Assembly (NCBI GenBank): GCA_025463265.1
Contig: JAOBWH010000053.1
Coordinates: forward strand, 1-40,076
DNA length: 40,076 nt
Source: Ilumatobacteraceae bacterium
Lineage (GTDB): Bacteria > Actinomycetota > Acidimicrobiia > Acidimicrobiales > Iamiaceae
Reading direction: 5' to 3'
Under the pieces are notes generated by a model. The model was not told where the DNA came from, did not search any database, and saw only the letters and a list, made by a program, of their open reading frames with translations. Made by a program: the position numbers and the translations under genes. Positions within the stretch are counted from its first letter, which is position 1. The number at the start of each line of letters is the position of its first letter. Shown here one piece after another: positions 22,413 to 29,940 of this stretch.

Positions 22413-22451
22413 GCGCAACGGCCCTCGGCACCCCGCCGAGGGCCGTTGCGC
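22413..22451 (+). terminator. Strong terminator hairpin after the SPFH gene
   Basis: GCGCAACGGCCCTCGG and CCGAGGGCCGTTGCGC form a perfect 16-bp stem around a 7-base loop, 30 bases after the stop. No T tract follows. Confidence 0.8.
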
Positions 22452-23767: not shown

Positions 23768-23781
23768 CTGACAGACGTCAG
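23768..23781. promoter_or_regulatory. Inverted repeat CTGAC-N4-GTCAG upstream of the Anbu gene
   Basis: CTGACAGACGTCAG overlaps the stop codon of the upstream gene and lies about 90 bp before the Anbu ATG. It is a plausible operator, short enough to be chance. Confidence 0.3.
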
Positions 23782-24452
23782 TGCGGTGGACCCTCGGGTC
23801 GGATGAGGACCTCGCCACCGATGGGGGTGAAGCCGGCGGCGAGCAGCGCACGGAGGCTGCGGGCGTTGCCGGGGGCGCACGAGGCGAACAGCGCCTCGCC
23901 CTGCGGCGTCTCGGCTCGCAGGTCTTCGATCAGGCCTCGCCCCGCCCGGCGGTCGTGCACTGCGCCGTCGACCAGCTCGAAGCCCAGCTCGGTGCGCCCA
24001 CCCAACCCGCGGCCCAGCGTGACCAGGCCGCGATCGTCGCCGAGCACCAGGACGTCGGTGCGCGTGGTGCGGGCGTAGTGGACGCGGGCGTGGTCGTCGT
24101 AGCGATCGGTGGGGGCCAGGGTGGTCCCGCCCGTGCCGGTGCCGCGGGCCACGAGCACCACGTCGATCACGCCGATCCAGCCGTCAGGCCCGGCCAGCCA
24201 CCGCAGCAGGTCGGGCGCCAGCGCACCCGCCAGCCCGTCGGCGCCGGCGGCGACGACCTCGTCGTGCGTCCGGTCCGTGGCGATGATGGCGTGCCCGGTG
24301 AAGCTGACCACGGCGTGCAGGCCCGTCGTGGCGTCGGGCGCCACGACCGTGACGCCCCCGTCGTCGAGCGGGAACCGTCCCTCGGCAGCGTCGAGCAGGA
24401 TCGGGCGCAGCGCATCGGTCACGGCCGGCCACCGTAGCGACCCCACCCGCAT
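23778..24452 (-). CDS. GNAT-like hypothetical protein
   Basis: The product is 224 residues from ATG 24452; an upstream GTG (24488) lies within a repeat and is less likely, and GTG 24423 is another option. The C-terminus (ALFASCAPGNARSLRALLAAGFTPIGGEVL) resembles the last strand-helix-strand of GNAT acetyltransferases (N-x-x-S-x-R-x-L-x-x-x-GF-x-P-I-G). The N-terminal half (TVVAPDATTGLHAVVSFTGHAIIAT) is of the kind seen in actinobacterial proteins with this tail. An acetyl-CoA loop is not clear, so activity is uncertain. It lies upstream of the Anbu gene on the same strand (98-bp gap). Confidence 0.6.
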   Translation of the reverse strand: MRVGSLRWPAVTDALRPILLDAAEGRFPLDDGGVTVVAPDATTGLHAVVSFTGHAIIATDRTHDEVVAAGADGLAGALAPDLLRWLAGPDGWIGVIDVVLVARGTGTGGTTLAPTDRYDDHARVHYARTTRTDVLVLGDDRGLVTLGRGLGGRTELGFELVDGAVHDRRAGRGLIEDLRAETPQGEALFASCAPGNARSLRALLAAGFTPIGGEVLIRPEGPPH

Positions 24453-24458
24453 GCTCGA

Positions 24459-24503
24459 ACTTGGAGGATCCGTGTCGCATGGCGTCACCTCTCCTCCAAC
24501 ATC
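24459..24503. repeat. Hairpin repeat, copy A
   Basis: The conserved core GTCGCATGGCGTCACC (24474-24489) sits between TTGGAGGA (24461-24468) and TCCTCCAA (24492-24499), a perfect 8-bp stem. The unit ends in AACATC. It starts exactly 60 bp before copy B. Confidence 0.65.
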
Positions 24504-24518
24504 CGCCGCCGATCACCG

Positions 24519-24570
24519 ACTTGGTGGATCGGCGTCGCATGGCGTCACCGATCCGCCAAGTTGGAACATC
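24519..24570. repeat. Hairpin repeat, copy B
   Basis: The same core (24534-24549) lies between ACTTGGTGGATCGG (24519-24532) and CCGATCCGCCAAGT (24548-24561), a 14-bp stem with one G-T pair. It also ends in AACATC. The stems of the two copies differ but stay paired, while the core is unchanged. It follows the ABC ATPase stop by a few bases and might also terminate that operon. Confidence 0.65.
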
Positions 24571-24577
24571 GGGGTGG

Positions 24578-25327
24578 TCAGAGGCGGCCGGCTTCGATGA
24601 CGCGCTTGAGGAACTGGCGGGTGCGCTCCTGGGTGGGGTCCTTCAGGAGCTGGCTGGGCGGGCCGGACTCCAGGACCCGACCCTCGTGGAGGAAGTCGAT
24701 CCGGTGGGCGACCTCTCGGGCGAAGCCCATCTCGTGGGTGGCCATCACGATCGTCATGCCCTCGGCTGCCAGGGAGCGGATCGCGGAGAGCACCTCGCCC
24801 ACCAGCTCCGGATCGAGCGCGGAGGTGACCTCGTCGAGCAGCAGGATCTCGGGGTCGGCCACGAGGGACCGGGCCAGCGCCACCCGCTGCTGCTGGCCGC
24901 CCGAGAGCTGCTCGGGGTACTTCTGGGCGTGCTCGGCGACGGCGAGCCGGTCGAGGAGCTCCATCGCCCGGGCCTCGGCCTCGGCCTTCGGGACCTTGGC
25001 CGCCTTGCGGGGACCGAGCGTGACGTTGTCGAGGACCCGCATGTGCGGGAACAGGTTGAACGACTGGAACACGATGCCGATCCGACGGCGGATCGAGTTG
25101 GCGTTGACGCCCGGAGCGGTGATGTCCTCGCCGTCGAGGAGGACCCTTCCGCCGTCGATCGGCTCGAGCAGGTCGATGCAGCGCAGCAGCGTGGACTTCC
25201 CGGACCCGCTGGGGCCGATGAGGCACACGACCTGGTGCTCGTCCACCGAGAGATCGATGCCGTCGAGCACCACCCGGTCCCCGTAGCGCTTGACCAGCCC
25301 CTCGACCCGGAGCTTCCCGGCGCTCAC
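24578..25327 (-). CDS. Polar amino-acid ABC importer, ATP-binding protein (GlnQ/HisP type)
   Basis: This 249-residue ATPase of the polar amino-acid uptake class has Walker A GPSGSGKST (38-46), Q-loop VFQSFNLFPHM (~87-96), signature LSGGQQQRVALARSL (141-155) and Walker B ILLLDEVTSALD (161-172), with switch histidine in ATHEMGFARE. FNLFPHMRVLDNVT is typical of GlnQ/HisP-type subunits. The start is GTG 25327, overlapping the permease TGA as GTGA, so it is translationally coupled. It is the last gene of a three-gene operon read leftward. Confidence 0.93.
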   Translation of the reverse strand: MSAGKLRVEGLVKRYGDRVVLDGIDLSVDEHQVVCLIGPSGSGKSTLLRCIDLLEPIDGGRVLLDGEDITAPGVNANSIRRRIGIVFQSFNLFPHMRVLDNVTLGPRKAAKVPKAEAEARAMELLDRLAVAEHAQKYPEQLSGGQQQRVALARSLVADPEILLLDEVTSALDPELVGEVLSAIRSLAAEGMTIVMATHEMGFAREVAHRIDFLHEGRVLESGPPSQLLKDPTQERTRQFLKRVIEAGRL

Positions 25328-26208
25328 ACCGCGACCTGGCTGCGCCGGGCGCGGTCGCGCGTGGTGAGGTGGTCGACCACCCGCACCAGCGGGATCGAGA
25401 CGGCGAGGAAGAGCACGGCGGCGGCGACGTAGGACGTGTAGTTGAAGGTGCGCGACGTGTAGATCTGTGCCTCGCGCACCGCCTCGCGCACGCCGAGCAC
25501 GCTGATCAGCGCCACGTCCTTCTGCAGGCTCACCACGGTGTTCATGAGGGCGGGGATCACGTTGCGGATCGCCTGCGGGAGGATGGCGTGGCGCAGCGCC
25601 TGGCCCTGGGTGAGGCCGATGGCACGCGCCGAGGCGCGCTGGCTCTCGGGCACGGCGTCGATGCCCGCCCGGAGGATCTCCGCGGTGTAGGCCGCATACG
25701 ACAGCGCCAGCGCGGCGACCCCCCAGAAGAACGCACCGGAGGGCACCCCGCTCAGCTGGAGCGCCGGCACGCCGAAGCCGAGCAGGAGGATGAGCAGGAT
25801 CATCGGGATGCCGCGCATCACGTCGATGAAGCAGATGGCGAGCGCCTTCAGCGGGAAGAACGCAGGACCCCGGAAGCTCCGGGCGACCGCGAGCACGAGG
25901 GCCAGGACCGGGATGACCACGATCGAGATGGCGAAGATCTTCATGTCGGTCCAGAACCCGTGGAGCACGTCGGGCCACGATTCCCGGAACGCATCGGGAT
26001 CGAAGAACTGGTGGCGGACCTCCGGCCAGTTCGGGCTGCGCGTGATGAGCACGGCGGCCACCACGAGGAACACGACGGTGCTGGCCGTGGCCACGAGCGC
26101 CGCACGGGCGCCCTCCTCGCGCGACCGGCCGGACCCGAGCCGCGCCCCGAAGATCCCCGGACCGGGTCCGGGGACCAACGGGGGCACGACCGGGTCGGGA
26201 CCCGTCAC
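25324..26208 (-). CDS. Polar amino-acid ABC importer, permease (HisM/GlnP type)
   Basis: The protein is 294 residues from GTG 26208, chosen because AAGTGAG lies 6 bases upstream; GTG 26244 would overlap the binding-protein gene. After a Pro/Gly-rich cytoplasmic lead (~1-40), the first membrane segment (ATASTVVFLVVAAVLI) is followed by a large periplasm-side loop and the binding-protein-dependent transport domain. The EAA-type loop reads ASARAIGLTQGQALRHAILPQAIRNVIPAL. A single permease gene implies a homodimer. It sits between the solute-binding lipoprotein and ATPase, with 7 bp and a 4-bp overlap respectively. Confidence 0.9.
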   Translation of the reverse strand: MTGPDPVVPPLVPGPGPGIFGARLGSGRSREEGARAALVATASTVVFLVVAAVLITRSPNWPEVRHQFFDPDAFRESWPDVLHGFWTDMKIFAISIVVIPVLALVLAVARSFRGPAFFPLKALAICFIDVMRGIPMILLILLLGFGVPALQLSGVPSGAFFWGVAALALSYAAYTAEILRAGIDAVPESQRASARAIGLTQGQALRHAILPQAIRNVIPALMNTVVSLQKDVALISVLGVREAVREAQIYTSRTFNYTSYVAAAVLFLAVSIPLVRVVDHLTTRDRARRSQVAV

Positions 26209-26215
26209 GATGGGC

Positions 26216-27097
26216 TCACTTGGTGAGCGTCGGGATGTCGCCACCCTGGTTCAGGTACTGCTCCTCGAGGTCGGCGAGCGTGCCGTCGTCCTTCAGGGCG
26301 GCGAGGGCCTCGTTCACGCACGGGACCAGCGGGCTGCCGTCCTCGAACAGCAGGCCGAGCTCCTCGGCGTCACCCTGCTGGGGCAGGACGCCCACGATGG
26401 TCGAGTCGGTGATCTCGGCGGCGGTGATGTAGTAGGCGGTGGGCAGGTCGAAGACGATCCCGTCGACCTGGCCGGCGTCGAACGCGGCCTTGGCGGCGGC
26501 GTTGTCGTCGAACACCAGCGGCTCCTTCGACGGCTTGATGTACTCGTCGATGTAGTCGAGGCTCGTGGTGCCGATGGCTGCGCCGAGCTGCACGTCTCGG
26601 AGGTCCGTCAGCGATGTGGCGTCGGCGAGGTCGCTGTCGGGGCTGGCGATCACGGCCTGCTCGACGGTGTAGTAGCCGTCGGAGAAGTCGACGACCTCGT
26701 CGCGCTCCGGCGTGATCGAGTACTGCTGGACGTTGAGGTCGTAGTCCTTCTCCCCGGGGGCGACCGCTTCGTCGAAGCCGGTCCGGGTCCAGGTCACGTC
26801 GGCCTTGTCGATGCCGAGCTGGTCGGCGACGGCGTAGACCACGGCGCTCTCGAAGCCCTTGCCGTTCTCGGGCTCGTCGTCGACGACCCAGGGCTCGAAC
26901 GCCGGCTCGCCGGTGGCCACCTGGAGGCTGCCCGCCTCCTTCAGCGGCAGATCGGCGTTGTCGCAGGTGGCCTCGCCGCCCGCGGCCGTGGTGGTGGACT
27001 TCGACGCATCGTCGTCGCTGCCGCTGCTCCCGCAACCGGCGGTGATGACCGCCAGCGTGAGGACGGCCGCGAACAAGGCGGGGGTTCGGCGAGACAT
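26216..27097 (-). CDS. Amino-acid ABC importer, solute-binding lipoprotein
   Basis: This 293-residue SBP family 3 protein has a lipoprotein signal with lipobox ITAGC (Cys22), a Ser/Asp/Thr linker, then a two-lobed binding domain (LQVATGEPAFEPWV, FDEAVAPGEKDYDLNVQQYSITPER, DGYYTVEQAV, AAIGTTSLDYI). The conserved YSITPER is typical of cluster 3 amino-acid binders. The start is strong: GAGGAG six to eight bases before ATG 27097. It is first in the operon. Its upstream region carries a perfect palindrome, a candidate operator. Ligand specificity cannot be read from sequence. Confidence 0.92.
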   Translation of the reverse strand: MSRRTPALFAAVLTLAVITAGCGSSGSDDDASKSTTTAAGGEATCDNADLPLKEAGSLQVATGEPAFEPWVVDDEPENGKGFESAVVYAVADQLGIDKADVTWTRTGFDEAVAPGEKDYDLNVQQYSITPERDEVVDFSDGYYTVEQAVIASPDSDLADATSLTDLRDVQLGAAIGTTSLDYIDEYIKPSKEPLVFDDNAAAKAAFDAGQVDGIVFDLPTAYYITAAEITDSTIVGVLPQQGDAEELGLLFEDGSPLVPCVNEALAALKDDGTLADLEEQYLNQGGDIPTLTK

Positions 27098-29902: not shown

Positions 29903-29940
29903 ACGACCGAGGGCGGGCCGAAGCGGCCCGCCCTCGTCGT
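29903..29940 (-). terminator. Strong hairpin between ahpC and ahpF (attenuator candidate)
   Basis: GAGGGCGGGCCG (29909-29920) and CGGCCCGCCCTC (29924-29935) form a perfect 12-bp stem with a 3-base loop; a further ACGAC/GTCGT extends it to 17 bp with one bulged C. It starts 20 bp after the ahpC stop. Partial read-through to ahpF is the likely use. Confidence 0.75.

What the first reader, a model, noticed from the sequence alone, without database searches (positions are those of the whole stretch)
24459..24570. A 60-bp tandem hairpin repeat with constant loop and varying, still-paired stem
Two units share the invariant core GTCGCATGGCGTCACC at exactly 60-bp distance. Their flanking arms differ (TTGGAGGA/TCCTCCAA versus ACTTGGTGGATCGG/CCGATCCGCCAAGT) yet remain complementary. 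Compensating stem changes around a fixed loop suggest selected structure: a REP/BIME-like element, a small RNA motif, or a protein-binding hairpin. I do not recognise it as a named family.
Basis: seen in the sequence. Interest (0 to 1): 0.62.

Follow-up and report, generated by a model that had tools for sequence, protein, structure and literature searches.

The report
Dispersed DNA palindromes tied to nuclease
The repeated hairpin is one of about fourteen copies of a paired DNA palindrome scattered through this bacterium's genome, and in this whole bacterial order such palindromes, different in each genome, bracket the genes of an unstudied DNA-cutting protein that probably recognises them, which looks like a previously undescribed kind of repeat-and-enzyme partnership.

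Summary
The two units are real: 45-bp imperfect palindromes, exactly 60 bp apart, 36/45 identical. The reading "constant loop, varying but paired stem" is wrong family-wide. Across 22 units the outer arms AACTTGG/CCAAGTT and an inner CGC...CG core are conserved, and covariation does not beat shuffles. The element (45+15+45 bp) has 13 complete copies and 1 cut copy in this draft genome, in intergenic DNA wherever context was read, and none in 11 congeners. There is no REP foot (GTAG) and no RAYT/Y1 transposase. Two copies bracket a gene for a fusion protein: AbiEi antitoxin fold (PDB 6y8q, Z 13) plus Vsr/EDxHD homing-endonuclease fold (3r3p, Z 11.8). In relatives, 36 of 57 such genes have matching repeats, mostly palindromic, on both sides, against 2 of 552 control genes, and one of those two proved to be another such gene. 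At least four of these flanking repeats are themselves dispersed through their own genomes, each gene with its own repeat. AbiEi operators are known to be 23-bp inverted-repeat pairs, the same geometry. Best reading: a REPtron-like partnership of dispersed palindromes and a cognate nuclease, built on a non-homologous enzyme. The association is shown; binding, cutting and spreading are inferred.

The parts
24458..24562 (+). Complete dispersed element: palindrome unit 1 + 15-bp linker + palindrome unit 2 (105 bp); 13 complete copies and 1 cut copy in the genome
24458..24502 (+). Palindrome unit 1 (45 bp), 15 of 21 arm positions Watson-Crick paired, 3-nt centre
24503..24517 (+). 15-bp linker; family consensus CCGCCCCCnnnnnCC, conserved in most copies, so the pair behaves as one unit
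24518..24562 (+). Palindrome unit 2 (45 bp), 17 Watson-Crick + 2 G-T pairs of 21
24578..25321 (-). Neighbour: ABC transporter ATPase (amino-acid uptake operon with permease 25324-26244 and solute-binding protein 26216-27097); the element lies just after its stop codon; context only
23778..24453 (-). Neighbour: gene of unassigned family, no Pfam match, looks acetyltransferase-like by eye; its start lies 5 bp from the element; context only

Best explanation
The window element is a gene-less ('solo') copy of a genome-specific family of paired DNA palindromes. Their cognate partner is an AbiEi-Vsr fusion nuclease, encoded once on contig C149 between two further copies of the same element. An AbiEi-type two-domain DNA-binding half (residues ~16-207 of P0001) is proposed to read the palindrome as an operator. 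A Vsr/EDxHD homing-endonuclease-like half (residues ~215-315) is proposed to nick or cut at it. Repair of these breaks from other copies would multiply, array and spread the palindromes, and keep copies on both sides of the nuclease gene. It works like a REPtron (RAYT + REP) but with a non-homologous enzyme. SHOWN: dispersal, lineage-specificity, architecture, bracketing of the genes, one gene to one repeat family, protein fold and conserved active site. INFERRED: binding of the palindrome, cleavage, and spread by the nuclease.
For: (1) Dispersed family of 27 units in 13 complete + 1 cut element, absent from 11 congeners. (2) Contig C149: gene 242-1189 sits between elements 68-171 and 1210-1314, in a genome with only ~14 elements in 4.05 Mb. 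(3) In relatives 36/57 AbiEi_4+REase genes have similar sequences in both 350-bp flanks, against 2/552 control genes (Fisher p 8e-41) and 0/107 controls with long intergenic flanks; 0/8 AbiEi_4 genes without the nuclease domain. The best-scoring control outlier, met blind, is itself an AbiEi_4-DUF559 gene with flanking palindromes. Among five further non-Arachnia loci, four show it. (4) Flanking repeats are dispersed in their own genomes: G020 gene 1 ~50 copies, many in tandem pairs ~62 bp apart, none convincing in three congeners; G020 gene 2 has a different family in ~70-bp arrays, also on both sides of its gene; G028 ~30 copies; G014 three further places in a 400-kb sample, none in G110. 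(5) Fold: AbiEi antitoxin 6y8q Z 13.0, Rv2827c 1zel Z 10.2; I-Bth0305I homing nuclease 3r3p Z 11.8, Vsr 1cw0 Z 10.6. E218, D250, E261, H268, D277, R280 nearly invariant. (6) AbiEi binds two 23-bp inverted repeats 3 bp apart; Rv2827c binds two such pairs in tandem (PMC7319586). The window units have 21-bp arms and a 3-bp centre, two in tandem.
Against: 21 of 57 such genes lack detectable matching flanks. Some flanking families were not found dispersed in samples of about 9-11% of the genome (two in G014, two in G110). A dispersed palindrome family in G036 matches none of the three AbiEi_4 loci examined there. Similarity of proteins predicts similarity of palindromes only weakly (Mantel Spearman 0.11, 108/2000 permutations reach it). 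Three Arachnia relatives show no clear matching flanks. In G028 two non-nuclease genes also lie between two copies. No target-site duplication or empty site was demonstrated. No biochemical evidence.
Confidence: 0.6

Rival explanations
1. Homing only: the palindromes spread by some other route, and the AbiEi-Vsr gene is a free-standing homing endonuclease that targets and inserts among existing palindromes, so the gene is a parasite of the repeats and not their maker.
For: The catalytic half resembles the homing endonuclease I-Bth0305I (Z 11.8); genes lie between repeats; palindrome families without an identified gene exist (G036).
Against: Each gene has its own repeat family, including two families in one genome. 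The gene is flanked by complete repeats, often several units on each side, and not by two halves of one site. Multiple gene copies within one repeat family were not seen.
Confidence: 0.2
2. Regulon: the palindromes are plain operators of an AbiEi-type repressor that gained a nuclease domain; dispersed copies regulate neighbouring genes and the flanking ones autoregulate.
For: AbiEi and Rv2827c autoregulate through inverted repeats of the same geometry (PMC7319586). Copies are mostly intergenic.
Against: Copies also lie downstream of the gene, after stop codons and between convergent genes. Copy sets are lineage-specific. Tandem arrays and conserved linkers point to duplication of the DNA itself. 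Nuclease residues are conserved.
Confidence: 0.12
3. Ordinary hairpins such as transcription terminators or mRNA stabilisers, unrelated to the nuclease.
For: Strong hairpins; the window copy follows an operon's stop codon.
Against: One copy lies between divergent genes (C186). The pair plus linker is conserved as a unit. The nuclease bracket statistics and absence from congeners are unexplained.
Confidence: 0.05

Closest known systems
REP/BIME elements with RAYT (TnpA_REP), 'REPtrons'
   Same: Short intergenic palindromes, dispersed, paired or arrayed, lineage-specific, with a single enzyme gene flanked by copies of its own repeat (PMC8266576, PMC3733652)
   Different: No GTAG foot in the 22 own-genome units, palindromes 45-55 bp with 21-bp arms, no HUH/Y1 transposase found in this genome; the enzyme is an unrelated AbiEi-Vsr nuclease
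AbiEi / Rv2827c type IV antitoxins and their operators
   Same: Same two-domain fold (6y8q, 1zel) and same inverted-repeat pair geometry in the promoter (PMC7319586)
   Different: Fused to a nuclease, no AbiEii toxin gene recognised beside the own-genome copy, operators also downstream and dispersed genome-wide
EDxHD/Vsr-like homing endonucleases (I-Bth0305I, 3r3p)
   Same: Catalytic domain fold (Z 11.8) with conserved acidic residues and histidine
   Different: Not in an intron or intein; sits between complete palindromic repeats in intergenic DNA; DNA reading presumably by an AbiEi module
COG4636 selfish PD-(D/E)XK nucleases (PMC551604)
   Same: Nuclease genes proposed as selfish elements
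   Different: Different family; no occurrence of 'palindrom' in that paper

Membership tests
REP/BIME (GTAG or CGTC REPs) | Palindrome preceded by conserved GTAG (or CGTC) tetranucleotide | tested here: not met
   No GTAG or CTAC in any of 22 aligned units with 2-nt flanks; conserved ends are AACTTGG/CCAAGTT. CGTC was not scanned separately.
REP/BIME (GTAG or CGTC REPs) | Multi-copy, dispersed, mainly intergenic palindromes, often paired | tested here: met
   13 complete + 1 cut paired elements, intergenic where context was read
REPtron (RAYT-associated) | HUH/Y1 tyrosine transposase gene in the genome | tested here: not met
   PF01797 search of the own genome: no match; 5 of 14 control genomes ring. 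Assembly is ~96% complete.
Type IV TA antitoxin AbiEi | AbiEi wHTH + C-terminal domain | tested here: met
   PF13338 E 5e-9; PADLOC AbiEi E 4e-30; 6y8q Z 13.0
Type IV TA antitoxin AbiEi | Adjacent AbiEii nucleotidyltransferase toxin | tested here: inconclusive
   Downstream neighbour is a NifU-like gene; the upstream side is the contig end, so no toxin was seen but the contig is short
EDxHD/Vsr homing endonuclease | Vsr-like catalytic fold with conserved active site | tested here: met
   3r3p Z 11.8, 1cw0 Z 10.6; D250 and E261 invariant, E218 and H268 nearly so
EDxHD/Vsr homing endonuclease | Cleaves an allele lacking its gene and copies itself in | not testable with these tools
   Needs biochemistry
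Structured RNA family (Rfam) | Match to a described family, or covariation | tested here: not met
   No Rfam match at gathering score; covariation no better than shuffles

The most novel reading that the evidence does not exclude
A new class of REP-like system across Acidimicrobiales-type actinobacteria: AbiEi-Vsr fusion nucleases that make and maintain their own dispersed palindromic repeat families, an independent counterpart of RAYT/REP built from an antitoxin-type DNA reader and a homing-type nuclease.
Probability: 0.5. Interest if true: 0.87.

Novelty: categorically new. Interest (0 to 1): 0.76.

Why it matters
RAYT/REP has been the standing example of a bacterial single-copy enzyme paired with its own dispersed palindromes. 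A second, unrelated enzyme class doing the same job would show the arrangement evolved more than once. It would give a function to a large group of genes annotated only as 'DUF559' or 'AbiEi antitoxin domain' proteins, and explain genome-specific palindromes in these bacteria. Because each gene sits beside its own candidate recognition site, specificity and cleavage become directly testable.

Tried and rejected
Rfam: no hit. RAYT/Y1 transposase: none. Compensatory covariation: not above shuffles. Terminator reading: rejected by a copy between divergent genes. Integron attC sites: considered because ends carry AAC/GTT and hairpins bracket a gene, set aside because tandem pairs 60 bp apart hold no cassette; IntI was not searched. 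DUF559 family search alone missed the own-genome gene and AbiEi_4 found it. Two alignments were too diverse for a collection scan. Dispersal in G110 and G019, and of the G036 gene-side palindrome: none in samples. Protein-palindrome co-divergence: weak. Empty-site test in congeners: neighbour gene too diverged to settle it. Viral contigs: one chance match; phage records: no relative of P0001. Literature in the open library: nothing linking DUF559 or AbiEi nucleases to palindromic repeats; subscription journals and bioRxiv are not covered, so prior description cannot be excluded.

Full report
WHAT WAS CHECKED. The 16-base core occurs twice in the window, 60 bp apart. In register the feature is two 45-bp imperfect palindromes, 24458-24502 and 24518-24562, with a 15-bp linker. 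They are 36/45 identical and fold far better than shuffles on either strand. The claim of compensating stem changes is not: unit 1 simply has more mismatches, and only one two-sided change keeps a pair.

THE FAMILY IN THIS GENOME. A BLAST of the region against the window's own genome (4.05 Mb, 204 contigs) found further copies, while 60 relatives gave only chance-level matches. Fetched copies share the design AACTTGGAGGATC-19-GATCCTCCAAGTT, linker CCGCCCCCnnnnnCC, then a second such palindrome, total 105 bp. Covariance models of unit and element found 27 units in 13 complete elements and 1 cut by a contig end: C29 (window), C127, C27, C96, C186, C17, C181 (2), C149 (2), C140 (2), C197 (2). In 98 relatives, including 11 congeners, no such family appears; the weak matches in G016 and G060 are different hairpins. 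Contexts include co-directional, convergent (C17) and divergent (C186) intergenic spaces. What is conserved is the outer arms and the inner CGC...CG, and the pairing is explained by sequence conservation: pairing and covariation do not exceed shuffled controls.

WHAT GOES WITH IT. The genome has no Y1/HUH transposase match and the units have no GTAG foot, so this is not a recognised REP/RAYT system. But two of the ~14 elements lie 1.1 kb apart on C149, bracketing one gene. Its product P0001 (315 aa) matches AbiEi_4 and weakly the Vsr-type MTES_1575/DUF559 nucleases. The AlphaFold2 model (pLDDT 92.7) superposes residues 16-207 on AbiEi antitoxin 6y8q (Z 13.0) and residues 215-315 on the homing endonuclease I-Bth0305I (3r3p, Z 11.8) and Vsr (1cw0, Z 10.6). 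Over 54 relatives, D250 and E261 are invariant and E218, H268, D277 and R280 nearly so, so the nuclease is probably active (inference).

TEST IN RELATIVES. AbiEi_4 genes are common in the order: 85 of 119 genomes. For 57 with the nuclease half, from about 32 genomes, I compared the 350 bp upstream with the 350 bp downstream. 36/57 share a repeat (score 50 or more), mostly one or several 45-55 bp imperfect palindromes on each side. Of 552 other genes of similar size, 2 do (Fisher p 8e-41), and 0 of 107 with long intergenic spaces on both sides. AbiEi_4 genes without the nuclease half: 0/8. The best-scoring of the two control exceptions turned out, when translated, to be another AbiEi_4-DUF559 gene that the domain search had missed, with flanking palindromes. 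That is an unplanned blind confirmation. A separate collection scan gave further loci: four of five outside Arachnia have matching palindromic flanks, three Arachnia loci do not.

ARE THE FLANKING PALINDROMES DISPERSED THERE TOO? Yes for most gene-repeat pairs searched genome-wide, and for some in large samples. G020 gene 1: ~50 copies, many in tandem pairs ~62 bp apart; in three congeners at most one short marginal match. G020 gene 2: a different family in ~70-bp arrays, on both sides of its own gene. G028: ~30 copies. G014: three further places in a 400-kb sample, none in a G110 sample. Two other G014 families and two G110 families had no convincing copy in 9-11% samples. So copy number varies and some genes may have few or no solo copies.

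MECHANISM. AbiEi represses its own promoter by binding two 23-bp inverted repeats separated by 3 bp; the M. tuberculosis homologue Rv2827c binds two such pairs in tandem (PMC7319586). The window element has two palindromes with 21-bp arms and 3-bp centres, in tandem, the same geometry. I therefore infer that the AbiEi half reads the palindrome, probably as a dimer, and places the Vsr/EDxHD half to nick or cut it. Repair from other copies would expand arrays and maintain copies on both sides of the gene. How a palindrome reaches a new site is not explained. Binding, cutting and mobilisation are inferences.

WHAT DOES NOT FIT. 21/57 genes have no detectable matching flanks; a G036 palindrome family has no identified gene; palindrome and protein divergence correlate only weakly, with shared repeat motifs visible mainly above ~55% protein identity; no empty site or target duplication was obtained.

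NOVELTY. REPtrons, AbiEi operators and Vsr-like nucleases are each known. The partnership of dispersed palindromes with AbiEi-Vsr nucleases was not found in the searchable literature. That library omits most subscription journals and preprints. Because defining REP/RAYT features were tested and not met, I do not file it as a REP; it works like one.

Noticed in passing
L037:1814-2008 (G000 contig C181): Upstream of one element, a 45-bp half-unit is repeated in tandem twice more (AACTTGGAGGATCGGTGTCGCTGGGCGTC...), a local array expansion; a near-identical element lies 5.6 kb away.
   Followed up: partly
L042:1400-1722 (G000 contig C140 end): A 188-bp unit holding a classical terminator hairpin plus the element is duplicated and the contig ends inside the second copy.
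   Followed up: no
L238-L247 (G036 contig C44), e.g. L241:14130-14188, L243:4708-4758, L247:12366-12406: Another abundant dispersed palindrome family (core GTACGGATCGCGC-like, roughly ten places in 200 kb) that matches none of the three AbiEi_4 loci examined in that genome; its partner gene, if any, is unknown.
   Followed up: partly
L097:811-1821 (G000 contig C15): A second AbiEi_4-DUF559 gene in the window's own genome, with different GAAC...GTTC-type hairpins on either side; their dispersal was not searched.
   Followed up: partly
L178-L180, L192 (G028): Two other short genes (maleylpyruvate-isomerase-like and F420-oxidoreductase-like by eye) also lie between two copies of the G028 palindrome ~0.9 kb apart.
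   Followed up: partly
window 22413-22451 and 29908-29936: Two perfect GC-rich palindromes, probably ordinary terminators (GCGCAACGGCCCTCGG...CCGAGGGCCGTTGCGC and CGAGGGCGGGCC...GGCCCGCCCTCG).
   Followed up: no
L308 (Arachnia propionica record), downstream of the relative of P0001: A long strong palindrome (CCGCTGCAAACGTGCGGAGCGTTGC...) follows the gene although no matching upstream copy was seen; the association may extend beyond this order.
   Followed up: no
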